Made by a program: the position numbers and the translations under genes
From: Candidatus Brocadiia bacterium
Lineage (GTDB): Bacteria > Planctomycetota > Uabimicrobiia > Uabimicrobiales > JABWCH01
Assembly: GCA_013359215.1 (NCBI GenBank)
Contig: JABWCH010000010.1
Span: 1-34,588, forward strand
DNA: 34,588 bases
Reading direction: 5' to 3'
Part shown: piece after piece, positions 19,836-34,588 of the stretch
Layout: each line of letters starts with the position of its first letter
Position numbering within the stretch: the stretch's first letter is position 1
Notes under the pieces: model-generated
Databases searched by the model: none
Seen by the model: the letters and a program-made list of their open reading frames with translations, nothing else
What the model was told of the DNA's origin: nothing

Positions 19836-20897
19836 GTGGCGGATTTGAATTTTAATGTTGAACCTCTAGGTAACCTGGAACATGCTGCGTTGGTCAAGAT
19901 CAATGGGGCTATTGATGCCAAAACCGTTGTGATTTTTCAAGAAAAACTCGATCAACTTCAGCAAGAGGGCTATACTCGTTTTATATTGGATATGGAAGGC
20001 ATTAAATACGTAAACAGTGCAGGTCTTGGTATTTTAGTCAATGTTGCCGATGCTTTAGAAAATCGTGGGGGCGGAATTGCCCTTGTAAAGATTCATCCCA
20101 AGGTCAAGGTTGTTTTTGATATGCTTGGGTTGAATGCCTTTTTTAAAATTTTCTCCAATGAAGATGAAGCTTTAGTCCATTTCCAAAAATCGGACAAACC
20201 TTCTTCTAAAGGACATGATATTACTAAAACAGCGCCAAGCATTACAACAAGTGCGGCAGACAATCGTCCACCCAGAATTACCCAGACAAAACCAGCACCC
20301 ATGAATGTTCCTCCACCCCCTAGTGTTCCTGTAGCTGCTGCCCCTACCAATGTATTAACAACCAAGGTCAGCCCTCCTACAGAACCAGGTGCTCCTTTTT
20401 CTTTAGTCTGTGCTATGTGTAAGGTTAAACTTACGATTCCCAAACCAGGTAGCTATAAATGCCCTCGATGCGCTACTTTTTTCAAGCTGTATGACGATTG
20501 TCGTGTAACATTCTCTGAAAGAAAAAAGGCTTCGCCTCTACAAATGAAACTTTCTTGTACAGAAGATTGTATGATAGGCTTGTGCGAATTTACAGGCGTG
20601 TTGGCAAATACAATTGGCTTTCCTTATGAGGAAGTTGTTGCCATTAAAGATGCTTTGAAAGAGGTTTGCTCTGCTGTGATCGAAAGAGCATACGAGAATA
20701 AGCAATATCTTTCTTACAATGTAGTCATCAATCCCTCTTCTATGGATATAAAAATTCAGATTTCTGATTATGGCAAATTCATCTACGATGAAAAAGTTTT
20801 CCAAAAAACCATGCAAACTATGGAAGAGTTCGAGCATAAGCAGCATCCCAAAGGCGGCAATATTATCAACTTTGGTAAAACGGTTAAATTGCATTAG
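19836..20897 (+). CDS. STAS, zinc-ribbon and degenerate HATPase-like fusion protein (partner-switch type)
   Basis: This 353-residue soluble protein starts at GTG behind a strong AGGAGG. Residues 1-112 form a STAS (anti-anti-sigma) domain with the phosphorylatable serine in KYVNSAGLGILVNVADAL and the C-terminal FDMLGLNAFFKIF. A Pro/Thr-rich linker (about 118-185) leads to a zinc-ribbon-like CAMC...CPRC (about 192-212). The C-terminal part (about 228-353) has the spacing of an RsbW-like HATPase: VAIKDALKEVCSAVIERAY resembles the N-box with its Asn replaced, and ISDYGKF resembles the DxGxG box. Classical systems keep antagonist and kinase on separate proteins. Here they are fused and the kinase half looks weakened. 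The STAS call is firm; the HATPase call is moderate. Confidence 0.85.
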   Translation: MADLNFNVEPLGNLEHAALVKINGAIDAKTVVIFQEKLDQLQQEGYTRFILDMEGIKYVNSAGLGILVNVADALENRGGGIALVKIHPKVKVVFDMLGLNAFFKIFSNEDEALVHFQKSDKPSSKGHDITKTAPSITTSAADNRPPRITQTKPAPMNVPPPPSVPVAAAPTNVLTTKVSPPTEPGAPFSLVCAMCKVKLTIPKPGSYKCPRCATFFKLYDDCRVTFSERKKASPLQMKLSCTEDCMIGLCEFTGVLANTIGFPYEEVVAIKDALKEVCSAVIERAYENKQYLSYNVVINPSSMDIKIQISDYGKFIYDEKVFQKTMQTMEEFEHKQHPKGGNIINFGKTVKLH

Positions 20898-21103: not shown

Positions 21104-21177
21104 CGTGCCTGTTGGGATTCGAACCCAAGACCTACAGCTTCGGAGGCTGCCACTCTATCCATCTGAGCTACAGGCAC
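21104..21177 (-). tRNA. tRNA-Arg (anticodon CCG)
   Basis: On the minus strand a full cloverleaf can be drawn. The acceptor arms GTGCCTG/CAGGCAC match perfectly. There is a D arm GCTC...GAGT with one G-U, an anticodon arm GCAGC/GCTGT around CT-CCG-AA (CCG at 21141-21143 complement) and a T arm TTGGG-TTCGAAT-CCCAA. The discriminator base is G and CCA is not encoded. It reads the arginine codon CGG. Confidence 0.95.
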
Positions 21178-22087: not shown

Positions 22088-22344
22088 TCAATTCTGTTTT
22101 TGAGAAGACTTTTCTAAAATCTGGAGTGCTTCCTCTTCTGTCTGGCATAGGGGAATGAAATCTTTCAAGCCGAGCATATCCCACAAGGCAGCCATTTTCT
22201 CAGGCAGGCCCACAAATACTGCGTTGCTGCCTTTTTCGGACAGCTTTTCGATTTCTTTTAAAAACAATCCCATGCAGGATGTTGCAGAGCCTATTTTGAA
22301 ATTGGAAAAGGTTACAATCATACAAGGTTTTTGAGACAGCCCCT
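22088..22344 (-). pseudogene. C-terminal half of a STAS domain, out of frame with the TPR gene
   Basis: In the frame one base off from the upstream TPR gene, the translation reads MIVTFSNFKIGSATSCMG, then LSEKGSNAVFVGLPEKM and ALWDMLGLKDFIPLCQTEEEAL. This is the second half of a STAS domain and closely parallels FDMLGLNAFFKIFSNEDEAL at 19836-20897 and FNMLGLVPLLKIYATEKEAI at the end of the large kinase. The first half of the domain is missing, no good start codon exists (only a TTG at 22390 in unrelated sequence), and the upstream frame belongs to the TPR gene. I read it as the remains of a TPR-STAS gene damaged by deletion and frameshift. A programmed +1 shift is less likely. Confidence 0.7.
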
Positions 22345-22829
22345 GCTGTCCGAAAACAATCCTTTGCTTTCTTATAATACTGGATAGCAACTTCCAGGCT
22401 ACTTATCAGGCTGTGCTGGATTAGATTTTTCTCGTATATCTTGGCTAACTTAGAATAGAGAGATGCGGCAAAAAGAGGTTGTCTGGTGTCTTCCCAGGCT
22501 TTGGAAGCAGATCTATAATGCTCTATAAATCTATAATCACAGTGTATGCTTGATGTATCTAAAATGGATTCGTAAAGATTGCCCAAAATTTCGAGAAGAA
22601 TAGCAAGCATTTCTCTATTTTCGCTCTTTTCTACTATTTTTTTTGCTTCTTGGTAATGAGCAATCGCTCTATCCATCTCTCCATCGCGAATAGCCTGGTT
22701 TCCCATCATGGCTTCTTCTTCCCATGCTTCTTTTTGGCATTCCGCCTGGACAAATGCACCTATCGCTTTTCTCCGACCCAGCAAACTTTCAATGCAGACC
22801 AAAATGGGTATATTTTTGGGAACTTCCAT
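22200..22829 (-). CDS. TPR-repeat protein, C-terminus frameshifted
   Basis: The frame gives 209 residues from the ATG at 22829, which has GAGGA just upstream (a longer start at 22850 has none). Residues about 30-160 are TPR-like (AIRDGEMDRAIAHYQEAKKIVEK, AASLYSKLAKIYEKN, VAIQYYKKAKDCF). After CFRTAG the frame runs on for about 46 basic residues (KRNRKAVRKRQQRS) that are the wrong-frame reading of the STAS remnant. The natural protein therefore probably ended or continued differently. A GACAGC/GCTGTC hairpin sits exactly at the junction (22335-22350). It may be a scaffold or signalling protein, now perhaps non-functional. Confidence 0.6.
   Translation of the reverse strand: MEVPKNIPILVCIESLLGRRKAIGAFVQAECQKEAWEEEAMMGNQAIRDGEMDRAIAHYQEAKKIVEKSENREMLAILLEILGNLYESILDTSSIHCDYRFIEHYRSASKAWEDTRQPLFAASLYSKLAKIYEKNLIQHSLISSLEVAIQYYKKAKDCFRTAGAVSKTLYDCNLFQFQNRLCNILHGIVFKRNRKAVRKRQQRSICGPA
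22335..22350 (-). other. Hairpin at the TPR/STAS frame junction
   Basis: GACAGC-4 bases-GCTGTC is a perfect 6-bp inverted repeat where homology switches from one frame to another. It may mark a deletion endpoint. A frameshift-stimulating structure is possible but no slippery sequence is evident. Confidence 0.4.
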
Positions 22830-22872
22830 AGATTCCTCTTTATGATTCATAGCTACGTAAGCAAAGATTTTT

Positions 22873-22967: not shown

Positions 22968-23024
22968 TTTTTATTTTCGGCTTGTCCAAGATAGGACATA
23001 AACTTTCGAACACCTACCTATTTT

Positions 23025-23702
23025 TTATGCTCTATTATAAAATAAAGCACTCAGTGCGATTAGTCCCAAACATAATGCTACCCATGTTGCTGGTTCTGGT
23101 ACTACTTCTGTGATAGTCATATTCAACGTAGCGATAGTGCCAGGTACATAGCCAGCCGACTTGCGTATTTCCAGGGATAGTATATCGCCAGCATTGACGT
23201 ATAGGTTACTAAAAGACAAAACTAATTTTGTCGCTTCATTATAGTGATTTGCATAAGAAACTGTATCTGTAAGCAAGGTGGTGGTCATAAGTTTTAAAAT
23301 GACATCATTGCTTCTGGACAGACCAGTTTGCCCATAGTAGATGAAACCACTTAAATCAATGTACCCGCTTTTCTGCGCTGTCCATCGGAGAAAGGCTTCC
23401 CCTTGTGCGCCCTGTCCATTTCCATCATCTCTGGAATGCACATAGACTACTTGATTCCCTTTCCAAAAAACGGGCAAAAAGTATCCATTGCTAGGGGATG
23501 GGGCAAAACCAGGCGCATTTCCCAGGGCAGCGATGCTAGACTGATAAGGCAGATAACTATTCCCATGCATGTACGCCCAAGGCGTATTGGGATTAGATGT
23601 ATTCCAGTCGTTTGCAAGATTGTATGTCACAGCAAAGACTGTAGAGCTAAAGGAAAAAAAGATAGCTATGACCACAAACAAAAAAAAGAATTTTTTTTCC
23701 AT
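23025..23702 (-). CDS. PEP-CTERM sorting-signal surface protein
   Basis: This 225-residue exported protein has a signal peptide (KKFFFLFVVIAIFFSFSSTVFA), a beta-rich passenger domain of unknown function and the tripartite PEP-CTERM tail: EVVPEPATW, a hydrophobic helix (VALCLGLIALSALF) and basic residues (YNRA). Such tails are cleaved and processed by exosortase, usually with a linked exopolysaccharide system. No exosortase is encoded here. A longer frame starts at 23735, but AAGGAG (23710-23715) sits 7 bases before the ATG at 23702, so that start is preferred. The gene stands alone, between repeat copies B2 and A3. Confidence 0.88.
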   Translation of the reverse strand: MEKKFFFLFVVIAIFFSFSSTVFAVTYNLANDWNTSNPNTPWAYMHGNSYLPYQSSIAALGNAPGFAPSPSNGYFLPVFWKGNQVVYVHSRDDGNGQGAQGEAFLRWTAQKSGYIDLSGFIYYGQTGLSRSNDVILKLMTTTLLTDTVSYANHYNEATKLVLSFSNLYVNAGDILSLEIRKSAGYVPGTIATLNMTITEVVPEPATWVALCLGLIALSALFYNRA

Positions 23703-23709
23703 TTTTTGT

Positions 23710-23715
23710 CTCCTT
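23710..23715 (-). promoter_or_regulatory. Shine-Dalgarno site that fixes the PEP-CTERM gene start
   Basis: AAGGAG on the minus strand, 7 bases before the ATG at 23702, favours this start over 23735. Confidence 0.75.
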
Positions 23716-23741
23716 AAAATAGTTTTTTTGAACAAAAAGAA

Positions 23742-23840
23742 TTACGCAAAGAGATTTTTATTTGGGGGAAAATTTTTGTAAAAATTTTCCCCCAAACCCC
23801 CTTTAAAAACTTTTATATATTTATTTTGCAATAGGTTATG
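23742..23840. repeat. Dispersed palindromic repeat family A, copy 3
   Basis: It is nearly identical to copy 2 from TTACGCAAAG to AATAGGTTATG, then diverges. The palindrome arms at 23764-23777 and 23780-23793 are perfect. It lies 38 bases beyond the stop of the minus-strand gene at 23879 and 39 bases before the PEP-CTERM start. Confidence 0.92.
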
Positions 23841-23878
23841 ATAAAAACAAATTCGAGAAGTTATTTAATTCTTGTTGC

Positions 23879-25027
23879 TTATCTATGAAAGCGGTCATAA
23901 ACCCAAATCACTAAAAAAAGTACAGCAAAGATGCAAAAAGCAATGAGTGTTCTGAAATAGCAAGGTTTTGAGGATACTTCACACAAATAGGGAGAAAAGA
24001 TAATTTCAAATGCCTGGGAAAAGCCGAAAAGAAAAACAGCAATGGCTAAGGCCCAACGGTTAGATTGGATAAAAAATGCGATAGTCTGAGATGCTATAAC
24101 ATTGTCCTGGTATTCTATTTCCAGAGGAATGACAGCCTGGTTGCTTAGCATGGTAGAATCCAAGACATAGACATCGTATTCAAAATTTTGATCCTGGCTG
24201 TTTCCTTGTTTGACAAAGAGAATGCGGTTGTCTTCTTTGAAATGGATAGCTCGGATTGGGATATTTTCATCACAATGGCGAGCCAAAGTCAAGAAATATT
24301 TTTTGCCTGGCACAACCCAAAAGGCTACATTTCGCTCTTTTACCTTTCGCCCTTTAGAATCTATCAACTTTCGGGTCATAGGGCGACGAGGTTCTGTTAA
24401 CCCCTTCAAACCTGTCGAGTTAGCTAAAGGCCGCAAGCAAATGTTTTTTTGCAGCAAGAGATCTTGCGATTGTTTTTTTACAAATATCTCAAAATCCTCT
24501 TTTCCCCATATCCAGAAGCGGACAGGGGGCGATATTTCCCCTGCCCTTAGATTGGGGATGGGATTCAGGGAATAGCCTCCTGCAATTCGGCTGGAATCTG
24601 CAATTTCCAGAAAGCTATTCTCCAAAGCATCCTGGCTATTGTTTTGGAGAGTGAGGGAAATCCCAAAAATATGCTCCTGGCCTGCTAATGTTTCCACTTT
24701 GTAGTCTATATCCAAACAAGGGGATATAAAAATTTTTGCTCCCTCTATCTTTTCTTCTTGTTGTATCCCGTCCTTTGCATAAAAAAGTTGTCCTTCTCCC
24801 AAAACAACCTCTCCTGCTTTTTCTGGCAAAGTATAGTTTTCTAACCAGGAGAGGCTCTGTTTAGGGTATAGGATTCCTGGCGAAAAGGTCTTGCATGCTG
24901 GACGCAAATCCAAAATAGCTACAGGAGAATCACCCGCTGTTATGGTAAACCGAACAGAGACTTTTTGTTTTGGGAAATAGGGTTTTTCTCCCAGAATCTC
25001 GCTCTTCCCTTGTAAAGGTCTGGACAT
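23879..25027 (-). CDS. Unknown protein with two C-terminal membrane segments, last gene of the ATPase module
   Basis: I do not recognise this 382-residue protein. It has no N-terminal signal peptide. Residues 1-310 look beta-rich (SVRFTITAGDSPVAILDL, FGISLTLQNNSQDALENSFLEI), suggesting Ig-like sandwiches. The C-terminus has two membrane helices (about 322-345, 357-377) and a short basic tail. The helical-hairpin anchor at the end would leave the large domain in the cytoplasm, unless an unusual signal is used. Its ATG is 3 bases after the ATPase stop, and its GGAGAG ribosome site is formed by the last codons of that gene. This argues for coupled expression and a shared complex, with this protein as membrane anchor. 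Repeat A3 follows it. Confidence 0.7.
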   Translation of the reverse strand: MSRPLQGKSEILGEKPYFPKQKVSVRFTITAGDSPVAILDLRPACKTFSPGILYPKQSLSWLENYTLPEKAGEVVLGEGQLFYAKDGIQQEEKIEGAKIFISPCLDIDYKVETLAGQEHIFGISLTLQNNSQDALENSFLEIADSSRIAGGYSLNPIPNLRAGEISPPVRFWIWGKEDFEIFVKKQSQDLLLQKNICLRPLANSTGLKGLTEPRRPMTRKLIDSKGRKVKERNVAFWVVPGKKYFLTLARHCDENIPIRAIHFKEDNRILFVKQGNSQDQNFEYDVYVLDSTMLSNQAVIPLEIEYQDNVIASQTIAFFIQSNRWALAIAVFLFGFSQAFEIIFSPYLCEVSSKPCYFRTLIAFCIFAVLFLVIWVYDRFHR

Positions 25028-25030
25028 GGT

Positions 25031-27343
25031 TTAGCTCTCCAGGATACGATTGATCAAATCTTTTTTAGTACCATAGGTAGGAAGATTGTAGCGTGAGCAT
25101 AAAGCCCTAAGATCCGAAAGCGTGCAATTGATCTCGATGCATTCCATGATTTCTTCATGGTTGAGAGCATCATACATCTCATCTAAGGTATTCTGTCTGC
25201 CAGTGGATGCCACTTCACATCCATGACTTCCCATATACTGGCGGACTTTCACGATAGGAATGGTGTGTGTATTAAAAATGCGTTCATAATTATTTGGAAT
25301 ATGGCTGCGGTCAACTTTTTTTAGTTTCTCTTTTAAATCCTCGATAATTTTCAACAGATTCTTTTTCTCTTCTTCGTAAGAAAATCGCTCCTTGTGCCAT
25401 GCTTTTTCTTTTTCTTGCCAATCTTTCTCTTTTTCTTCCCAATCTTTTCTCTCTTTTTGCCATGCTTTTATTTTTTCTGTGAATTCAGCAATATCCATTT
25501 CCTGCTGGAGCAGACATTTTTCTTTTTCCAAAAGCTTTTTTTCTTGCTCTAGCTGGCTGTGTTCTCTGTCGATCAGCTTTTTTTCTTTTTCTATCAGAGC
25601 TTTTTTCTTTTCTTCCCATTGCTGTTGGGTAGTTTGCTGCTGGGCTTCGATAGATTGCTCTTTTCGGAGCAAATCCTGCTTTTCCTTTTCCAGCTTTTGC
25701 AATTCTTCCAGATTTTGGTTCTTTAAGGATTCCAGCTTCGAAATCTCTTCCTTTAGCTCTTCTTGTCTCTTCTTTTCTTTTAAAGCGATTTCTTTTTGTT
25801 CCTCGATTTCCGTGGCTCTTTTCTTTTCTGCTTCTTCTTTTTCTCTTTGGATGATCTCAGCGCGATGCAAAAAGAAATGCACGTTTCTGCCTTCCCTGAC
25901 TTCCTGCATTCTTTCATCAAAAAGGGTTCCCAGTATTTTCAGAATATTGCCTAAGGTATCTTGAGCAACTGTGGGGTTTTCCTTTCTAAAGCATAGGTCT
26001 CTGAGTTCTTTTTTGGTAAAAGGAAAAATCATTTCTGGATGCTCTGGTATGCTAAATTTTTTTTCCTTCCAGAACAGACGAAGACGTTTTTCTACAAGGC
26101 TGAACAGATCGGCTTCAGAAGGGGAAATCAAATTAACAGGAGGCTTGATTCTTCTTTGCACCTGGGCAGGAAGCCTTCTCGATATATCCATCCAATCGTT
26201 GAGCTGGCAACTAAAGAAAAGGGCTGTACCCTTACCATAGTTGAAGAGCTTGGCAAGGTCTGTGAAGAAGCTGGCCAAAATTCCATCGTATCTTGCAGAA
26301 TCAATATGGCGTTCTTTGAGCCGAGTCAAAGTTTCTTCGAATTGATCCATACTCAGGCAAATCACTTTTCGGCTTAGGCTGATGAGGGCTAATAGAGCTT
26401 TTAGTCTATCGTCCTGGTATTGAATGACATCTTCCTGTCCAGGGCCTATTTCATTTTCCTCGCTGCGATCCAGGGCAAACATGCTTTCGAAAGCAATATC
26501 CGATTCTTTCCCTGGGCGACAAAGGGCAAGCTTCAAGAGCTGCTGGAATGCTTTGGAAGGGATGCTCCCTGAAGTAAGAGATACACGATATGTATGCAAG
26601 GTTTCATTGACTATCTTTTCTATGTCAAATCTATTTTGCAGCAAAGGTATCAGCTCTTCTGGATTTTGTGCCTTTTTTTGAACATCCAGGCAGTTTGTGT
26701 TTGAATTGTCGAATCTGGAAAAAAAGCCGTTTGGCTTAAGGAAAAGTCTGCTGGCCCATTCTGGATCACCGCTCTGGCAAACTTGCTGTATCGTGGTTGT
26801 AAAAAGAGGCATTGCCATAGACAAAAGGGCTGGATAGTCTTCGTTGAGAAAAGATCGGCTTCTCAATTCATCCAAAAGATTGCGTACAAGATAGTATACA
26901 ACAGAGCCTTTGCCCACAAAAGGTCGGAAGTTCAGATAAAAAGCCCCCATTTCCTGGACAGGCTTTTCCAGAAAGCGAAGAAGGTGTGTTTTCCCAGAGC
27001 CTGCGCTTCCTACTAAAACGATCCATTCATTGCCGCCTTCGTCGTTTTTCTGGACACTATGGAACATCCTCTGTATTGCCCCCATCAATTCTTCCCTGCA
27101 AGCTTTATTGATGTTATGGATATTGCTTTCCCAGACAGCTTCTCTGGACATATTGTCTGCTGCGATAAGAGAAAAAGGATTGTGTCTGGTTTGTGCAATT
27201 TCACACAATAAAGCATCATCAGCAGGAAACTGAAGCCAGCCACTGTTGATTGCTTCTTCTGGCTGAGTAACCAAAGAAAAAGAAATCTCTTCTTTTTCTG
27301 GTAAAGTATGGTTTGTGTTCGTGCTATTTTCTCCAAGAGACAT
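25031..27343 (-). CDS. P-loop ATPase with long coiled coil and C-terminal SAP-like motif
   Basis: This 770-residue cytoplasmic protein has an N-terminal ATPase domain (about 60-480) with Walker A GSAGSGKT (112-119) and a Walker B-like KVICLSMDQFEE (D333 then Q334), as in STAND/Orc-like or conflict-system ATPases. A highly charged coiled coil spans about 497-690 (repeated EKEKKLI, KDWEEKEKDWQEKEKAW units). The C-terminus (about 736-770) reads TLSDLRALCSRYNLPTYGTK, then KDLINRIL, a good SAP (DNA-binding helix-extension-helix) motif. Together they suggest an ATP-driven or ATP-switched machine that touches nucleic acid. Its start overlaps the end of the upstream gene by 20 bases with AGGAG before the ATG, and the next gene follows after 3 bases. 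I cannot assign it to a named family. Confidence 0.8.
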   Translation of the reverse strand: MSLGENSTNTNHTLPEKEEISFSLVTQPEEAINSGWLQFPADDALLCEIAQTRHNPFSLIAADNMSREAVWESNIHNINKACREELMGAIQRMFHSVQKNDEGGNEWIVLVGSAGSGKTHLLRFLEKPVQEMGAFYLNFRPFVGKGSVVYYLVRNLLDELRSRSFLNEDYPALLSMAMPLFTTTIQQVCQSGDPEWASRLFLKPNGFFSRFDNSNTNCLDVQKKAQNPEELIPLLQNRFDIEKIVNETLHTYRVSLTSGSIPSKAFQQLLKLALCRPGKESDIAFESMFALDRSEENEIGPGQEDVIQYQDDRLKALLALISLSRKVICLSMDQFEETLTRLKERHIDSARYDGILASFFTDLAKLFNYGKGTALFFSCQLNDWMDISRRLPAQVQRRIKPPVNLISPSEADLFSLVEKRLRLFWKEKKFSIPEHPEMIFPFTKKELRDLCFRKENPTVAQDTLGNILKILGTLFDERMQEVREGRNVHFFLHRAEIIQREKEEAEKKRATEIEEQKEIALKEKKRQEELKEEISKLESLKNQNLEELQKLEKEKQDLLRKEQSIEAQQQTTQQQWEEKKKALIEKEKKLIDREHSQLEQEKKLLEKEKCLLQQEMDIAEFTEKIKAWQKERKDWEEKEKDWQEKEKAWHKERFSYEEEKKNLLKIIEDLKEKLKKVDRSHIPNNYERIFNTHTIPIVKVRQYMGSHGCEVASTGRQNTLDEMYDALNHEEIMECIEINCTLSDLRALCSRYNLPTYGTKKDLINRILES

Positions 27344-28526
27344 AGTAGATCACTCCTGAATGAGTATAGATAGCGAATTCTGACTCTCTGGCTGCATGAG
27401 GGTCATTGATATGATGCAAATCGATCTTTTCTTGTCCACAAAGTTTATTTAAGCTCATCAGATATTGGCTGACACTCAGCCCAGGCAGGTGAGGCAATGC
27501 CTCTCTATATACTTCAGGGAGTTCAGGGCATATCAGAAGTGGGTTTTGATCTACGATTCGGCGGTAGGCTTTTTCTAGTTCATGGGCTATTTTCTCTTCG
27601 GAAATCTCCGCCTTATCTTTTTCCTGAAATTTGGGCTGCTCTGAATTTAGTCTGGATTCTTTTGGCTTTTCAGCGAAAACAAGATTCTTTTTATCTGGGA
27701 GAGCAGAAGGAATTTGCTCTGTTGCAGTTTTGGGCAAAGAAGGCTGCTCAGGAGATTTCTGCACAGGTGCTTCTTCTTTTCTTACCATAGCAATGTCGGT
27801 TTTCTCTAAAGTCGAAGTGGCCTGCGAAGGCGAGGAGAAAGATTTTTCTACGATCTCTCTAAGCCTCGAAATTTCTTTTCGCTGGCTGTCAATATGGGTT
27901 TGCTGCTCCTCTTGCTGAAGTTTCAGCTTTTCAATACACTCCTTATATTGCTGCTCTTGCTTCTGGGCAGATTCCACAAAAGACGATCTGGCTTTCTCTA
28001 CGATACTCCTAATGGAAAGCATTTCCAAGCCAATATGAGAAGCGTTCTGGAAATCTTGGATCAATTTTTTGCAATCGTTTTCCATGGTTTGGAGCGATTT
28101 TTCTAAAGCCAGAGGCTCTATGGCCGCTATTTGCTGGTTGATATTGCAAAAAAATTCTTGAAACTGGCATGCTGTTTTCTCTATTTCTTCTTTCATTCTA
28201 TCCAAAGAAGAACAAAATTTCTGGTATTTTTTTTCCAGAGGAAGCTGCTTGTGGTATTCTATGATTCCTTTTTCTGTAAGCTCAACCACTTGAGACTTTC
28301 CTATTTTTTTTATCAGCAAAATACCCATTTTCTGTGCTTCTTCAAGGACTTCTTCTTGCTGCATTTTCCATTTTTTCTGGGAAGATATGATTTCTTTATA
28401 AGAAACACATCCAGAAGCTTCCCCGCACTGGATCAATATTTGTTGGAGATATTGTGCTTTATCTAAAAGCATTTCAGATTTGGGAGGCTTGCTCTTTTTG
28501 CCAGTCTGTGCAGAGTTTTTTTTCAT
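27324..28526 (-). CDS. Winged-helix-like, coiled-coil protein, first gene of the ATPase module
   Basis: This 400-residue soluble protein is unassigned. Residues about 20-95 look like a winged helix (ILIQCGEASGCVSYKEIISS, a helix, then MGILLIKKIGKSQVVELTEKG as wing). A coiled coil covers about 100-235, including KQEQQYKECIEKLKLQQEE. A Pro/Lys/Ser-rich linker (about 245-325) follows. A compact C-terminal domain (about 330-400) ends in FAIYTHSGVIYYVSWRK, possibly a second winged-helix-like fold. A GAGGA site lies 7 bases before the ATG, about 80 bases downstream of a strong promoter. Its partner is very probably the coiled-coil ATPase that overlaps its 3' end. DNA binding is inferred, not shown. 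Confidence 0.7.
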   Translation of the reverse strand: MKKNSAQTGKKSKPPKSEMLLDKAQYLQQILIQCGEASGCVSYKEIISSQKKWKMQQEEVLEEAQKMGILLIKKIGKSQVVELTEKGIIEYHKQLPLEKKYQKFCSSLDRMKEEIEKTACQFQEFFCNINQQIAAIEPLALEKSLQTMENDCKKLIQDFQNASHIGLEMLSIRSIVEKARSSFVESAQKQEQQYKECIEKLKLQQEEQQTHIDSQRKEISRLREIVEKSFSSPSQATSTLEKTDIAMVRKEEAPVQKSPEQPSLPKTATEQIPSALPDKKNLVFAEKPKESRLNSEQPKFQEKDKAEISEEKIAHELEKAYRRIVDQNPLLICPELPEVYREALPHLPGLSVSQYLMSLNKLCGQEKIDLHHINDPHAARESEFAIYTHSGVIYYVSWRK

Positions 28527-28613
28527 GAAAATTTCCTCACATTATCAAAATAAATTGAACAGCTATAATACTTTATCACCCTTAAATATATTACTCCTAT
28601 GTTTCTGTTTCTC

Positions 28614-28642
28614 ATTATATCTTTTTTGGACTAAAATGTAAA
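28614..28642 (-). promoter_or_regulatory. Sigma-70-like promoter for the three-gene ATPase module
   Basis: On the minus strand -35 TTTACA (28637-28642), 17 bases, and perfect -10 TATAAT (28614-28619). Together with the inverted repeats just upstream, it fills the 228-base gap between the kinase cluster and the module, so the module can be expressed separately. Confidence 0.7.
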
Positions 28643-28645
28643 TAG

Positions 28646-28688
28646 TTTTGCAGAACGATTGCAAAATTACCGCTTAAGAACGGTTCTT
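28646..28688. promoter_or_regulatory. Two operator-like inverted repeats upstream of the module promoter
   Basis: TTTTGCA-7 bases-TGCAAAA (28646-28666) lies directly beside the -35 element. AAGAAC-G-GTTCTT (28676-28688) follows 9 bases further out. Their size and place suit regulator binding. The winged-helix protein encoded downstream is a candidate for autoregulation (inference). Confidence 0.5.
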
Positions 28689-28754
28689 CTGAAATGCTTT
28701 CAACTTTCAAGAAAATTTCTGCATTTTGGAAACAACTATGAGATAAGCTGCTTC

Positions 28755-28982
28755 TCAGGGAAGCTTTTTAGCCGTGAGCTGTACTTCCAAAACCCAAGGT
28801 TCTTCCGAAGGTCTGATAATCTCTTTTCGCTCTTTTATGCTTTGATCCTTTATCCAGGAAAGAAGTACAGGGAGACTAAACAAAAAGCAAAAAAAGGGTA
28901 TCAAAACACAACCTGCCTTGATATATAAAGGAATTTTTTTATTTGATAAAAACTTCAATAGAATTTCTATAAAAATTTCCAT
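28755..28982 (-). CDS. Small membrane protein of the kinase cluster
   Basis: This 75-residue product has one or two hydrophobic stretches (IFIEILLKFL weakly, then AGCVLIPFFCFLFSLPVLLSWI) and a polar, charged C-terminal half. No family is recognised. The ATG is 8 bases after the kinase stop, and a GGGGG ribosome site overlaps that stop, so it is probably translated with the kinase. It could be a partner of the kinase's membrane segment. A real gene is likely but not certain, given its size. Confidence 0.55.
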   Translation of the reverse strand: MEIFIEILLKFLSNKKIPLYIKAGCVLIPFFCFLFSLPVLLSWIKDQSIKERKEIIRPSEEPWVLEVQLTAKKLP

Positions 28983-28990
28983 TTTGCCCC

Positions 28991-31900
28991 CTATGGATTT
29001 TCATAAGTTTCTATGGCTTCTTTTTCTGTTGCATAAATTTTCAACAACGGAACTAAGCCCAGCATATTGAAAAGAGACTTGATTTTGTCTGATACTTTTA
29101 CTATTTTAATAGTTCCGCCCTTTTGTTGGAATTCCTCTGTCATTTTAACCAAAAGCCCCATTCCTATACTGTTTATATAGTTTACCTCGGAAAAAACCAA
29201 AATCTGGTCTTTCATGCCTTGCTGGAAATATTCCAGCAATTGCTTTTCACATACTTGCGATGTATAGGTGTTAATAGGCCCTGCGAGTTGAACCAAAGCC
29301 ACCTTATGATTCTTTAAAGGGATTTCTTTTACAGAAAAGGAAAGATTGTCTTTTTCAGAAGTATTTTGCTTTTCTTCACTATAAGAATTTTTTTCTTCCT
29401 TATCTTCATCTGCTTTTGTCTCTTGAATAGAAGCAAAGTCTGCTTTATTATCTGGTAGACTCCAAAAATCATCGCTTATAGAATTTTGCAACAAGACCTC
29501 CAATGTTTCTGTCACTTCACCTCCAAAGAAAAATTTGGTCATGTATTTTGGAGCTTTTTTTACAGCATATTCCCAAAACCATCCTGGTATCCCGACAAGA
29601 TAGTCAAAGCGAGAATCATGATGATTGGGACAGTCCTTCTGCTCTAATAAGGTTTTTCCCCAAGACGGAAATACCATCTTAGAAGGATAAGCCCTTTTCT
29701 CTTTTTCCATACTCCATACTTTGACTGCACCATCCAGAAAGCCTGCTGCTAAGAGGTTGTCATCTTTACTAAAAGCTAAAGCTTGTATATTTTGCGTATT
29801 TTCTATTGGAAATCGTATCATCTCGCTTGCGCTAATAGAAGAAAATACGATAATATGATCTTTCCATACACCTGCTACTAGAGTTTTTGTATGGTTAAAA
29901 GTCAAACAATTCAAAAGATGATTTTGAAGTATTTTGGGCTGTTTTGGAAAAGATTCTTCAGACATATCTATTTCCTTATCTGCATTTGTACCTATAATCT
30001 TTTCTTTTGTCCAATCTACCTTGCCTATCAATGTATTGCCATCTTGTTGATACAAAACGCTTTTCAGATCGTGAGAAAGAGCAATAACAGGTTCTTGAAA
30101 AAATTGACGGTCATAAGTTTGTAGAGGAACATCCCATACCTGAACAGTATAGCCAATAGCAGACTGCATTTCATTTTCAATGATATATCCTACTTTTTGG
30201 CTGTCCAAACTCCATTCCAAAGAAATTACAGTCCCTTGTGCAATCCCATAATTTTGTACATATTGACTTTTGGATATTAACCCCATTCTGGTTTCCAGGA
30301 GTTTAGAGTGGAATTCTTTTTTTTCTGTATCCCATACTTTTACCACTTCATCTCCTATTGCCAGGAATTTATCGTCAGGGCTGAATTTTAGGTTGTGTAC
30401 AGTGCTTAGATTGTCTTGCAATGTCCAAACAATCTTCCCCGTTTCTGCATCCCATAATTTTACAGTCTTATCATAAGAACCAGAAGCTATCCATTTTCCC
30501 GAATTGCTGAATACAGCACAGGAAATAACATCGGCATGCTCTCCGATTTGCTTTTTTTCTCCTGTCTCAAGATTCCATATTTTTACTGCCCTGTCGTCTC
30601 CAGCAGATAGGATATTTTTGCTGGAAGCACTAAAGCACAAGCTTCGAATGCCTCCATTATGCTGTTTTCCCTGGTATACACATTTGGGTGTTTTAGATAA
30701 CAAAGCAGAAACATCCCTGACTACAACCATATTGAAACCACACCCTTCACCTACTGTCCCAGTATCCTTTGTTCCTTCCTCAAAAGAGTAAACGATCTGT
30801 TTGGTATCTGGATTCACATGCAAGTCCAAAGTATTGTATTTTCTCATAAAAGCATTGCAAAAATTATTCTCCATGCTTGCCAGGGTTTGTCCAGATAAAA
30901 GATCATATATTTTGATTGTGCGATCCTTTTCTTTTCTTGCATCTATGCTTTCCGAAGCAGAAACCAATATAGAATTATCCATAAAGGCCAGAGCTACAAT
31001 CGGGGCAGAATGATAATGCAAATTATGCAAAAGTTTAGGAGGTTTTGACATATTGCATACTAAAATTTTGCCATCCTTACCACCCAGTACGATATTTTTT
31101 CCATCAGGGCTAAAAATCAAACGAGAGACATCCAGGTTTATTTTAAATTTTTGTACGCTTTTTTGTTTTTCTATATCCCAGATAACAAGGATTTTATCCT
31201 GTGTTGCAAAAGCGATAAACATGCTGTCATGGCTTATGGCTACGTTTGTATAGTTAGAAATATCATGAAGGTATTTTTGGCTGATACCAGCACTGCGATC
31301 CCAGATTTCTATGCTATTCTTAGAACAAAGCAGTATAATGCTGTTGTTGGCTAAAATTTTTTCATCAAATTTAATTTCCTTCTCAAAGGTATGAAGGCAT
31401 TTTCCAGAGGCAACATCCCAAACCTTACGATTTTTATATCCTGCGCCATAGGCGATTTCCCCATCTTGGGTTATTCCTTCAAAGAACCTGGCATCTTTTA
31501 TTTTCGCAGTTTCATGATATTCTCCAGAAACCAAGTCATAAAATCGAAAATAGCTATTGGAAAAAGAATTATTTGGAACCATCAGGGTTCGTCCATCTTT
31601 ATGTAACTTTGCGCCTACTAATCCTCCTACGACATTCATTTCTTTCACCCATATCAAGCCATACTTTAGAAATGCACTCAGCAATAAATCATCCGCCTGG
31701 CGGCGCAGATCTTCTACTTCATCTCCCGACAAATTCATAACAAACTGAAGACATGCCCCGCATAGAATCCCTGACTGCCTCCATTCTCTTCTTTCGTGAG
31801 CCTCTTGTGCCTTTGCCAGTGATATTTTAGCCAGTTGAATCTTTGCCATATAGGCATCTTTTTCCTGCATTTTTCTGGATTCTTCAGCCTTAATTTGCAT

Positions 31901-33292
31901 AATTTTCGCTTTTTCCTTTTCTATTTCTGCCTTTTTTTCGTTATCTTGTGCCATTTGACGTTGAATTATTTCACTTTTTTTCGATTCTTCGGCTTTCCAC
32001 CATAAAAAGGTAGATACAGTAATCCCCACTATAAGACTCAGAAAAAGCAGCACAACAGAAAACGATACTGCTTTATTTCTCATTACCAATTTTTGGAAAC
32101 GGCGAAGGTTGGTAACAGGCTGCGCTTTTATGGGGCGATTTTCCAAAAAATTTTGTAGATCTTCTGCCATTTCCTCTGCACTAGAATAACGTTGCAATAT
32201 ATTTTTTTCCAGGCTCTTAAGACATATAGCCTCCAGATCTGGATGAATATTAGGATTCATGGCTCTTGGACGGATAGGCTCGCATTTGCTATTGATTACC
32301 TGGGAAAGGATATTGATGTTCGTTTCTCCCTGATAAGGCGGACGGCCTACTAGCGATTCATATAGCGTAGCTCCTAATGAATATATATCGCTACGAGCAT
32401 CCACTGTTTCCCCCATAGCTTGCTCTGGTGACATATAAGCAGGTGTACCCATAATATCGCCTGATTTAGAAAGCCCCGCCTGTGTATTTTGTTGCTTTGC
32501 CAGCCCGAAATCCATAATTTTAGGGATAAAATTCTTCATTACCATAATATTGTGTGGTTTAAGGTCACGGTGGATGATTCCCTTTTCATGAGCTGACTGG
32601 ATAGCGCGAGCGCATAGTATAAAAAGAGGCACTACATTTTTTAAGGTAATTTTGCCCTGCTGGTTCAAAGCTTTTAATGTTTTGCCTTCAATATACTCCA
32701 TAACAAAATATGGCTTAGGCTTCTCTCCTACCTCAAAAATCTGGACAATGTTAGGGTGCTGCAATTGAGCTGTTAGTCTGGCTTCTTGCAAAAAACGGGC
32801 TATTTCCTTTTCATGGATATTGATACTGTTCAAAACCAGCTTGATTGCAACAGTGCGGTGAAGCTTAATATCCCATGCTTTATATACAACACCCATGCCT
32901 CCTTTTCCCAGTTCAGACTCTATATTATAATGCTCCAAAGATGCTCCAGGCAACAGGACAGGCTGCTTTTTAGGTTGTACCAAAGGCTCTTGCGATTTAG
33001 CACAAGATCTATCTCTCTTTTCTGGCATAGGATCTTCTGATTCAACAATCCTTTTTGTAGCAAGGTCTGGGATTACAGATTCTTCTATTTTTACCGTATC
33101 TTCTTCTGTGACTTCATTATCTTCAATGCTACTATTTTCCACTATTTCTATCTTGTTACCCATAGAAGGAAAATTTTTTCTTTCTGGTATAAGGTATTTT
33201 TTCCAGACTGTATCCTGAGGCTGGATAGAAGGTAAATCCCTATCATAATTTTTGACTTCAGAGTCTTGATGAATATTGTTATTTTGATTCAT
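28991..33292 (-). CDS. Membrane Ser/Thr kinase with coiled coil, WD40 propellers and C-terminal STAS domain
   Basis: The 1433-residue protein has an acidic N-terminal tail (1-120) and a full Hanks kinase (about 121-385): GKGGMG loop (129-134), K151 in VAIK, HRDLKPHN (D243, N248), DFGLA (D261), GTPAYMSPEQ. A TM helix (about 408-431) and a charged coiled coil (about 433-510) follow. About 750 residues of WD40-type repeats come next (SAGDDRAVKIWNLETGEK, ASGSYDKTVKLWDAETGK, AAGFLDGAVKVWSMEKEK), probably two propellers. The protein ends in a STAS domain (about 1320-1433) with the phospho-acceptor-type serine in NYINSIGMGLLVKM and FNMLGLVPLLKIY. WD40-carrying kinases are known in Planctomycetes, but a built-in STAS domain is unusual. 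A longer start at 33346 overlaps the upstream gene by 32 bases; 33292 is 22 bases past that stop and preferred, though its ribosome site is weak. Confidence 0.92.
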   Translation of the reverse strand: MNQNNNIHQDSEVKNYDRDLPSIQPQDTVWKKYLIPERKNFPSMGNKIEIVENSSIEDNEVTEEDTVKIEESVIPDLATKRIVESEDPMPEKRDRSCAKSQEPLVQPKKQPVLLPGASLEHYNIESELGKGGMGVVYKAWDIKLHRTVAIKLVLNSINIHEKEIARFLQEARLTAQLQHPNIVQIFEVGEKPKPYFVMEYIEGKTLKALNQQGKITLKNVVPLFILCARAIQSAHEKGIIHRDLKPHNIMVMKNFIPKIMDFGLAKQQNTQAGLSKSGDIMGTPAYMSPEQAMGETVDARSDIYSLGATLYESLVGRPPYQGETNINILSQVINSKCEPIRPRAMNPNIHPDLEAICLKSLEKNILQRYSSAEEMAEDLQNFLENRPIKAQPVTNLRRFQKLVMRNKAVSFSVVLLFLSLIVGITVSTFLWWKAEESKKSEIIQRQMAQDNEKKAEIEKEKAKIMQIKAEESRKMQEKDAYMAKIQLAKISLAKAQEAHERREWRQSGILCGACLQFVMNLSGDEVEDLRRQADDLLLSAFLKYGLIWVKEMNVVGGLVGAKLHKDGRTLMVPNNSFSNSYFRFYDLVSGEYHETAKIKDARFFEGITQDGEIAYGAGYKNRKVWDVASGKCLHTFEKEIKFDEKILANNSIILLCSKNSIEIWDRSAGISQKYLHDISNYTNVAISHDSMFIAFATQDKILVIWDIEKQKSVQKFKINLDVSRLIFSPDGKNIVLGGKDGKILVCNMSKPPKLLHNLHYHSAPIVALAFMDNSILVSASESIDARKEKDRTIKIYDLLSGQTLASMENNFCNAFMRKYNTLDLHVNPDTKQIVYSFEEGTKDTGTVGEGCGFNMVVVRDVSALLSKTPKCVYQGKQHNGGIRSLCFSASSKNILSAGDDRAVKIWNLETGEKKQIGEHADVISCAVFSNSGKWIASGSYDKTVKLWDAETGKIVWTLQDNLSTVHNLKFSPDDKFLAIGDEVVKVWDTEKKEFHSKLLETRMGLISKSQYVQNYGIAQGTVISLEWSLDSQKVGYIIENEMQSAIGYTVQVWDVPLQTYDRQFFQEPVIALSHDLKSVLYQQDGNTLIGKVDWTKEKIIGTNADKEIDMSEESFPKQPKILQNHLLNCLTFNHTKTLVAGVWKDHIIVFSSISASEMIRFPIENTQNIQALAFSKDDNLLAAGFLDGAVKVWSMEKEKRAYPSKMVFPSWGKTLLEQKDCPNHHDSRFDYLVGIPGWFWEYAVKKAPKYMTKFFFGGEVTETLEVLLQNSISDDFWSLPDNKADFASIQETKADEDKEEKNSYSEEKQNTSEKDNLSFSVKEIPLKNHKVALVQLAGPINTYTSQVCEKQLLEYFQQGMKDQILVFSEVNYINSIGMGLLVKMTEEFQQKGGTIKIVKVSDKIKSLFNMLGLVPLLKIYATEKEAIETYENP

Positions 33293-33314
33293 TTTTTTTC
33301 TTGTTGAAAATATT

Positions 33315-34472
33315 TTATATCTCCATTTGATTAGCACAATGCGCATCTAAAATGGAGCTTTCTATCACCATATATAGCCATTCTAATTCCTGTATACAAA
33401 GCCCTCTGCCAAGATATATCTCCGCAATATTGGAGCATAGCATAATGCAATGCCCTGGCAAATGTATACCGAATCTATCTAAACCCAAAAACTGGTTCAT
33501 TTTATCCGAAATCTCCCATTCTATAGGTTCAGAAAGGAGCTGCATGTCTTCTATTTCAGAAAAAAGGAAATCTTTTTTCCTTGACCATAAAGCATTTTTT
33601 TCCAGGACACTCATCTTGTCTCTTGCTATCATAATTTTTATTTCAGTACCAAAAAGACTAAAATAAAGAACAATAAAAATTCCAAGAGTGCTAATACATA
33701 TAAAGGTCATTAACGATACTATAATTAGCCAGATATAAGGAAAAATTTTCCAGTGCATCAAAAAAAATGCAAGCCATATTCCTGCTATCAAACATGCTAA
33801 AAAAAGACCAGTGCCTTTCCAAAGCGAGGGGATCTCAAGATAAATATTTTTATCCTCTAATTTATACTGAAGTCGCGCAGAAGAAGGCAACTTTGCAGAG
33901 CGAGTTGCTTTTCCTTTCAGCCTTTTTGCCAAACATTTCTCATCAGCAGGTTCTATGATTCTTGTCTCGCCCCTTGTAGAATCCAATATCTTTAAGCTCG
34001 TAAAGTGAGAAATACTTTTTGCTATGATCTTCTGTTCAAAATAATGATAGCTTTCTCCCAAAACAAGCTCTTTCTCTACTCCCACCAACTTCAGGACAAA
34101 AAGAATATATTCAGAGTTTTTCCCCTTACCTATTTCTTTCGACAAAGCAACACCATCATAGTCCATAAGACTATGATGCTTTCTAAAAAAAGGTTTGTAT
34201 AATCCCCACCATTTTACCATAGCCTTTTCTTCTCTATAGAATTCTACCCCTTTTCTCTCTAAGCCCACAAGAATACCCACAACAACCAAAAAAATTCCCA
34301 AAAAAAAGGCCATAGGCAAGGGATACTGATTATCAAAACTCTGGCTATTCCAAAGGCATTCTTTTAAGGCAAAGATACCTATACATGCCATAGAAATACC
34401 TACCAATGTAAGGATAGTACTTTCCGTTCTAAAAATCAGTATGTTTGGATCAGAAGAGGATATTGGTTTCAT
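33315..34472 (-). CDS. Four-TM protein with PH-like regions, first gene of the kinase cluster
   Basis: This 385-residue membrane protein has two TM hairpins (about 20-38/52-71 and 222-241/246-272). Each is followed by a soluble beta-rich part: about 75-165 (GVEFYREEKAMVKWWGLYK, ELVLGESYHYFEQKIIAKSI) and 280-385 (ALWSRKKDFLFSEIEDMQLL, HCIMLCSNIAEIYLGRGL). This TM-hairpin plus bacterial PH-like layout resembles YdbT/DUF304-type proteins, but the match is structural rather than by clear motif. AAGGA lies 7 bases before the ATG. It directly precedes the large kinase and is probably co-transcribed, so it may position or sense for it at the membrane. No specific function is known. Confidence 0.7.
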   Translation of the reverse strand: MKPISSSDPNILIFRTESTILTLVGISMACIGIFALKECLWNSQSFDNQYPLPMAFFLGIFLVVVGILVGLERKGVEFYREEKAMVKWWGLYKPFFRKHHSLMDYDGVALSKEIGKGKNSEYILFVLKLVGVEKELVLGESYHYFEQKIIAKSISHFTSLKILDSTRGETRIIEPADEKCLAKRLKGKATRSAKLPSSARLQYKLEDKNIYLEIPSLWKGTGLFLACLIAGIWLAFFLMHWKIFPYIWLIIVSLMTFICISTLGIFIVLYFSLFGTEIKIMIARDKMSVLEKNALWSRKKDFLFSEIEDMQLLSEPIEWEISDKMNQFLGLDRFGIHLPGHCIMLCSNIAEIYLGRGLCIQELEWLYMVIESSILDAHCANQMEI

Positions 34473-34500
34473 GATGGTTCCTTATGTTTTTTAATAGGAG

Positions 34501-34588
34501 TTACGCAAAGAGATTTTTATTTGGGGGAAAATTTTTGTAAAAATTTTCCCCCAAACCCCCTTTAAAAACTTTTATATTTTTATTTTCC
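34501..34588. repeat. Dispersed palindromic repeat family A, copy 4 (cut by window edge)
   Basis: Nearly identical to copy 3 over 88 bases from TTACGCAAAG, with perfect palindrome arms (34523-34536 and 34539-34552). It starts 28 bases upstream of the membrane-protein ATG at 34472 and runs off the right edge. Confidence 0.9.

What the first reader, a model, noticed from the sequence alone, without database searches (positions are those of the whole stretch)
23879..34472. Candidate undescribed system: kinase-WD40-STAS hub next to a winged-helix/SAP-ATPase/membrane-anchor module
Six minus-strand genes lie together: a PH-like TM protein, a kinase-WD40-STAS protein, a small TM protein, then a winged-helix coiled-coil protein, a P-loop ATPase with coiled coil and SAP motif, and a C-terminally anchored membrane protein. 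The last three are packed with a 20-base overlap and a 3-base gap. A membrane sensor kinase placed beside a nucleic-acid-touching ATPase with its own promoter suggests a regulated effector, for defence, DNA handling or stress. The order and domains are seen; the function is inference.
Basis: partly seen in the sequence, partly recalled or inferred. Interest (0 to 1): 0.8.

Follow-up and report, generated by a model that had tools for sequence, protein, structure and literature searches.

The report
Membrane-anchored variant of DNA-defence ATPase cassette
Three of the six flagged genes form a real operon that pairs a DNA-binding protein with an ATPase, a pair elsewhere linked to predicted anti-invader DNA machines, but here joined to a membrane anchor; the neighbouring kinase is one of at least 154 in this genome and does not belong to it.

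Summary
Three (27324-28526 winged-helix/coiled-coil, 25031-27343 AAA+ ATPase/coiled-coil/SAP, 23879-25027 C-terminally anchored) form an operon with its own promoter-like site. The same three genes in the same order occur in another genus of the family (DeMMO2_28) and in a Gemmataceae MAG of another class. A neighbourhood survey puts a protein with the same C-terminal winged-helix domain directly upstream of 25 of 27 ATPase relatives in Planctomycetota and Verrucomicrobiota. In at least 12 relatives the ATPase is fused to a HerA/FtsK translocase; in others the next gene is a PD-(D/E)XK nuclease fusion or a GHKL ATPase. This matches the predicted 'HerA/FtsK capture' anti-invader systems (PMC10853773). 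The window's version has no translocase or nuclease: coiled coil, SAP and a cytosolic tandem-Ig protein with a two-helix membrane anchor take their place. Most likely it is a membrane-tethered variant of that cassette; the defence function is inferred. The kinase-WD40-STAS, small-TM and PH-like genes are not conserved neighbours: the genome has at least 154 kinases. In Ca. Uabimicrobium amorphum the SAP-ATPase stands alone. Verdict: new variant of a known kind; function unproven.

The parts
27324..28526 (-). winged-helix / coiled-coil protein (400 aa): N-terminal wHTH-like region (about 25-95), coiled coil, conserved C-terminal wHTH-like domain (about 310-400)
   Evidence: C-terminal domain shared with 22 proteins, each directly upstream of an ATPase relative; orthologue in DeMMO2_28; HMM hit to L031 E=1.2e-10; HTH_45 hit in homologue L024
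25031..27343 (-). AAA+-type ATPase (770 aa): ATPase core about 48-490, coiled coil 488-675, SAP motif 741-769
   Evidence: Pfam SAP and sub-threshold AAA_16; AlphaFold2 model; Foldseek AAA+ matches incl. Cdc6 1fnn, prob 1.00 but E=0.02; orthologues with 27-29% identity
23879..25027 (-). beta-rich, tandem Ig-like protein (382 aa) with two C-terminal TM helices (324-343, 355-381); no signal peptide, so probably cytosolic domains on a membrane hairpin
   Evidence: Hydropathy; AlphaFold2 model of low-to-medium confidence; Foldseek matches to Ig-like tandem domains; orthologue in DeMMO2_28; HMM hit to L031 third gene E=0.0018
28614..28642 (-). promoter-like site TTTACA-17-TATAAT, 88 bp upstream of the winged-helix start
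   Evidence: Best match (11/12) in 23000-34588; consensus match only
28755..28982 (-). 75-aa single-TM protein; follows the kinase by 8 bp; not part of the three-gene core
   Evidence: no counterpart seen beside the L008 or L031 cores
28991..33346 (-). Ser/Thr kinase - one TM - WD40 propeller(s) - STAS protein (1451 aa); neighbour, not part of the core
   Evidence: Pfam; at least 154 Pkinase matches in the genome; not adjacent in other three-gene loci
33315..34472 (-).
   Evidence: No Pfam hit; three homologues in unrelated neighbourhoods

Best explanation
The system is the three-gene operon 23879-28526 only. It is a translocase-less, nuclease-less, membrane-anchored member of a modular cassette whose constant part is a winged-helix protein followed by an AAA+ ATPase, and whose third part varies. 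Shown: the operon, its conservation in three genomes of two classes, the winged-helix/ATPase coupling, and the HerA/FtsK, nuclease or GHKL partners of relatives. Inferred: the winged-helix protein recognises DNA or an invader feature; it loads or switches the ATPase, whose SAP tail holds DNA and whose coiled coil oligomerises; ATP-driven assembly brings the DNA-bound complex to the cytosolic Ig-like domains of the anchored protein. There it either tethers and sequesters invading DNA at the membrane or disturbs the membrane as a cell-sacrificing effector. The kinase-WD40-STAS and PH-like genes are ordinary neighbours.
For: Same three genes, same order, overlapping or closely spaced, in DeMMO2_28 and Gemmataceae SKYG125 (WH E=1.2e-10, ATPase 2e-16, anchor 0.0018). 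WH directly upstream (overlap to +60 nt for the 23 measured) of 25 of 27 ATPase relatives, two of them found with a WH profile built without them. HerA-fused ATPases in ten relatives by profile (L028, L030, L063, L071 also by Pfam/PADLOC) and FtsK in L067 and L138. Downstream PD-(D/E)XK fusions in L065, L094, L095; SspH-like FtsK in L067 and L094. Published class with Orc/CDC6 AAA+, wHTH protein, HerA/FtsK and REase (PMC10853773). Patchy distribution within the order. Own promoter-like site.
Against: The window operon lacks the translocase and nuclease that make the relatives look like defence. No PADLOC model hits the core convincingly. U. amorphum keeps the SAP-ATPase alone in a closed genome. 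No match in phage, plasmid or viral-contig collections. The window is not an obvious defence island and base composition is not clearly foreign. The anchor gene was found in only 2 of 392 sampled genomes plus L031, and its homology to L031 rests on E=0.0018 plus position and topology. ORC/Cdc6 membership of the ATPase is unproven.
Confidence: 0.5

Rival explanations
1. A housekeeping DNA-membrane tether: the winged-helix protein and SAP-ATPase bind the host chromosome and the anchored Ig protein fixes it to the membrane, for nucleoid organisation or segregation in a large, deformable cell.
For: SAP motif, coiled coils and a C-terminal membrane anchor in one operon; no nuclease; Uabimicrobium cells engulf prey and move on surfaces (PMC11481906, title and abstract).
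Against: Patchy presence: anchor not found in four of six order genomes, including the closed U. amorphum genome; relatives carry HerA/FtsK and nuclease parts.
Confidence: 0.2
2. A kinase-controlled stress or signalling system in which the kinase-WD40-STAS protein phosphorylates the winged-helix or ATPase protein.
For: Same strand and adjacency; the kinase has a catalytic domain, TM helix and propeller.
Against: At least 154 kinase domains in 6.4 Mb make a neighbouring kinase unremarkable; 228-bp gap with a promoter-like site; no kinase at the other three-gene loci.
Confidence: 0.07
3. A transcription-control unit: a wHTH regulator with an ATPase coregulator and a membrane sensor, without conflict function.
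For: wHTH domains; ATPase with XRE-type HTH tail and TM partner in G004 (L024).
Against: Pairing of the same ATPase family with HerA/FtsK and PD-(D/E)XK nucleases in relatives points to DNA processing.
Confidence: 0.13
4. A decaying remnant of a fuller HerA/FtsK capture system that has lost its effector.
For: Translocase and nuclease missing; U. amorphum retains only the ATPase.
Against: All three frames intact with tight spacing and ribosome sites; same three genes kept in two other lineages at 17-28% identity.
Confidence: 0.1

Closest known systems
HerA/FtsK capture systems with Orc/CDC6 AAA+ ATPase, wHTH protein and REase (Rakesh, Aravind and Krishnan 2024, PMC10853773)
   Same: wHTH protein gene next to an AAA+ ATPase; homologous WH-ATPase pairs in L028, L030, L032, L063, L067, L071, L094, L096 and others carry HerA/FtsK, and L065, L094 also a PD-(D/E)XK nuclease
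   Different: Window operon has no HerA/FtsK and no REase; ATPase has coiled coil plus SAP; third gene is a membrane-anchored Ig-like protein
SspB-SspC / DndFGH phosphorothioate systems
   Same: SspC is described as an ORC/Cdc6-clade ATPase and SspB/DndG as multi-wHTH DNA readers (PMC10853773); FtsK parts of relatives L067 and L094 match SspH
   Different: No sulfur-modification genes, no SspH or DndH in the window
BREX and BREX-related systems (BrxC/BrxD; PMC12839542)
   Same: ORC/Cdc6-type ATPase with wHTH and coiled-coil parts as scaffold; weak BrxC_BrxD hit in homologue L008
   Different: No PglZ, BrxX methyltransferase, BrxL or BrxB seen in the window
Planctomycete Ser/Thr kinases with WD40 arrays (PMC11032199)
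   Same: 28991-33346 has the typical kinase, one TM, then WD40 array
   Different: Extra C-terminal STAS domain; not part of the three-gene operon

Membership tests
HerA/FtsK capture systems (PMC10853773) | wHTH protein encoded with the ATPase | tested here: met
   Shared C-terminal wHTH-like domain, directly upstream
HerA/FtsK capture systems (PMC10853773) | Orc/CDC6-family AAA+ ATPase | tested here: inconclusive
   AAA+ core modelled; Cdc6 1fnn matches with prob 1.00 but E=0.02, HslU scores better
HerA/FtsK capture systems (PMC10853773) | HerA/FtsK translocase domain | tested here: not met
   Single P-loop, no HerA profile hit in window ATPase, none in the operon
HerA/FtsK capture systems (PMC10853773) | active or inactive REase domain | tested here: not met
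   No Pfam nuclease hit; region after the AAA+ core is modelled as long helices plus SAP
HerA/FtsK capture systems (PMC10853773) | restricts invading DNA | not testable with these tools
BREX | PglZ plus methyltransferase beside BrxC | tested here: not met
   None among the window ORFs read or in the core's profile hits
MADS (methylation-associated defense) | mad1-mad8 gene set | tested here: not met
   Only a P-loop-level mad8 hit (E=0.03) to the ATPase and a generic kinase hit to mad6
Wadjet (JetABCD) | SMC-like JetC with kleisin JetA | tested here: not met
   Weak hits fall in coiled coils only
Planctomycete WD40 Ser/Thr kinases | Pkinase, one TM, C-terminal WD40 array | tested here: met

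The most novel reading that the evidence does not exclude
A previously undescribed membrane-tethered anti-invader system: a winged-helix reader and a SAP-tailed AAA+ ATPase capture invading DNA and hand it to a cytosolic Ig-like, membrane-anchored protein that replaces the HerA/FtsK translocase and nuclease of related systems, acting by sequestration or membrane damage.
Probability: 0.3. Interest if true: 0.7.

Novelty: new variant of a known kind. Interest (0 to 1): 0.47.

Why it matters
If true, it shows that the sensor half of a predicted DNA-capture defence (winged helix plus AAA+ ATPase) is a plug-in module whose output can be a translocase, a nuclease, a GHKL ATPase or a membrane-anchored protein. 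It would give a small, three-gene version suited to testing how such ATPases recognise invaders. It also comes from the order of bacteria that engulf prey, which are constantly exposed to foreign DNA (that link is speculation).

Tried and rejected
Kinase hub: rejected on kinase abundance, spacing and promoter and absence at the other three-gene loci. PH-like/kinase pair as a conserved unit: rejected; homologues in G000:C524, G001:C545 and G004:C56 have no kinase, ATPase or WH neighbours in the stretches read. Phage or plasmid origin: no tblastn match and no viral-contig relative. tRNA-borne island: the tRNA-Arg at 21104-21177 has only one chance 12-mer repeat. Wadjet/MukBEF reading of the coiled coils: hits restricted to coiled coils. 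Direct sequence match to solved structures: winged-helix and anchor profiles found nothing useful, ATPase profile only P-loop matches. First genome-contig scan with the single ATPase sequence found nothing; the alignment-based scan worked. Generic STAND P-loop hits with E of 1e-3 to 1e-5 were not counted as relatives. The WH domain is not exclusive to the cassette: of 17 WH hits outside the training set, about 12 had no ATPase right behind them.

Full report
SETTING. The window is one whole contig (C13, 34,588 bp) of a metagenome-assembled genome of 6.39 Mb, 576 contigs and 84.7% completeness. Its relatives place it in the order of Candidatus Uabimicrobium: genome G005, 'same order', is U. amorphum SRT547, and G003, 'same family', is MAG DeMMO2_28.

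OBSERVATION. All six ORFs, the 20-base overlap and the 3-base gap are as described. Pfam confirms kinase, WD40, STAS and SAP; AAA_16 is below the curated cut-off for the window ATPase. The AlphaFold2 model of the ATPase (8-sequence alignment, mean pLDDT 66) has a core with the strands and helices of an AAA+ ATPase, a large helical insert between the second and third strands, two long helices at 488-675, and a small helical SAP end. Its best PDB matches are AAA+ proteins (HslU, Cdc48, ORC, Cdc6) with probabilities up to 1.0 but E-values above 0.001; I do not claim the ORC/Cdc6 clade. The anchored protein models as tandem beta domains plus two C-terminal helices (mean pLDDT 57) and matches Ig-like tandems such as transglutaminase barrels, complement and filamin. 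There is no signal peptide, and the C-tail is positively charged, so the Ig domains are probably cytosolic (inference).

WHAT IS ONE SYSTEM AND WHAT IS NOT. The three core genes carry ribosome-site-like sequences, and the strongest promoter-like site of the region lies 88 bp before the first of them. DeMMO2_28 has winged helix, ATPase and anchored protein in the same order with 17- and about 25-base overlaps. A Gemmataceae MAG, from another class, has the same three genes (L031: 8958-9923, 9920-11998, 12069-13349). Profiles made only from the order's own sequences (window and DeMMO2_28, plus U. amorphum for the ATPase) find all three L031 proteins: E=1.2e-10, 2e-16 and 0.0018 in a database of the fetched ORFs. 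The upstream neighbours differ (PolX in DeMMO2_28, a divergent ThiF-type gene in L031), so the kinase and PH-like genes are not part of the unit. This genome has at least 154 kinase-domain matches, and kinase-WD40 fusions are a hallmark of the lineage (525 kinases, 49 with WD40 arrays in U. amorphum; PMC11032199). Homologues of the PH-like protein stand in unrelated neighbourhoods.

NEIGHBOURHOOD SURVEY. Profile searches of about 390 planctomycete genomes and of GTDB contigs gave 27 ATPase relatives studied in detail. In 25 a protein ending in the same winged-helix-like domain lies directly upstream, from overlapping to +60 nt for the 23 measured; for two (L039, L070) the domain was found with a profile built without them. 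The exceptions are U. amorphum and G054:C190. The third element varies. HerA is fused to the ATPase in ten relatives (L028, L029, L030, L032, L063, L071, L093, L096, L097, L100), and FtsK in L067 and L138. PD-(D/E)XK fused to HerA/FtsK follows in L065 and L094, and PD-(D/E)XK fused to a RuvB-like AAA in L095. A GHKL ATPase follows in L073, a zinc-ribbon/TM protein in L024, and the anchored Ig protein in the window, L008 and L031. The FtsK parts of L067 and L094 match SspH. The sampling is biased: these are the best profile hits, and the winged-helix domain also occurs without an ATPase (about 12 of 17 new hits; one in this genome, C299).

KNOWN COUNTERPART. PMC10853773 describes mobile 'HerA/FtsK capture' neighbourhoods with an Orc/CDC6 ATPase, a rapidly evolving wHTH protein, an active or inactive REase and HerA/FtsK, proposed to intercept invading DNA. 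The HerA/FtsK-bearing relatives fit that description. The window operon fits only in part: wHTH yes, AAA+ yes with clade open, HerA/FtsK no, REase no. I therefore do not file it as a member, but as a variant that shares the winged-helix/ATPase half.

MECHANISM. Shown: gene order, domains, coupling and partner swapping. Inferred: DNA recognition by the winged-helix protein, ATP-driven assembly, DNA grip by SAP, and delivery to a membrane-anchored Ig platform, ending in sequestration or membrane damage. Chance of an anti-invader role of some kind is about one half. A chromosome tether is the main rival (0.2).

LIMITS. The MAGs are incomplete, and the window and DeMMO2_28 contigs are short. The anchored protein was found in only two of 392 sampled genomes besides L031, so either it evolves fast or the variant is rare. 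The ATPase-alone state in the closed U. amorphum genome shows that the trio is not obligatory. Nothing here tests function.

Noticed in passing
window 22088-22850 (-): A TPR ORF (22200-22850) overlaps an ORF with only the second half of a STAS domain (22088-22390) in another frame: a decayed or frameshifted TPR-STAS gene, or an assembly error.
   Followed up: no
window 28991-33346 (-): The only predicted TM helix (426-444) separates the kinase from both WD40 and STAS, so the STAS domain would lie on the far side of the membrane from the kinase, unusual for STAS.
   Followed up: no
window 19836-20897 (+): STAS domain joined to a weak HATPase_c_2 domain in one protein, an anti-sigma-antagonist plus kinase-like fusion.
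   Followed up: no
window 23025-23735 (-): Small secreted protein with a C-terminal PEP-CTERM-like motif just downstream of the operon.
   Followed up: no
L095 1865-6122 (-): Winged helix plus ATPase followed by a PD-(D/E)XK nuclease fused to a RuvB-like AAA+ with RuvB_C domain: another partner for the same sensor pair.
   Followed up: partly
L073 127-3883 (-): Winged helix plus ATPase followed, with a 4-base overlap, by a 608-aa GHKL (HATPase_c_3) protein.
   Followed up: partly
L024 6861-10223 (-): G004 of the same order has a diverged three-gene operon: winged helix, ATPase with XRE-type HTH tail, and a zinc-ribbon/TM protein.
   Followed up: partly
L072 6049-8787 (+): DeMMO2_28 carries a second, diverged winged-helix/ATPase pair besides the three-gene locus.
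   Followed up: partly
L031 6183-7736 (-): The Gemmataceae three-gene locus lies about 1.2 kb from a divergent gene cluster with a ThiF/E1-like protein that matches E1-E2 defence models.
   Followed up: partly
L137 2-700 (+) (G000:C299): A second coiled-coil/winged-helix protein of this genome, cut by the contig start, is not followed by an ATPase.
   Followed up: partly
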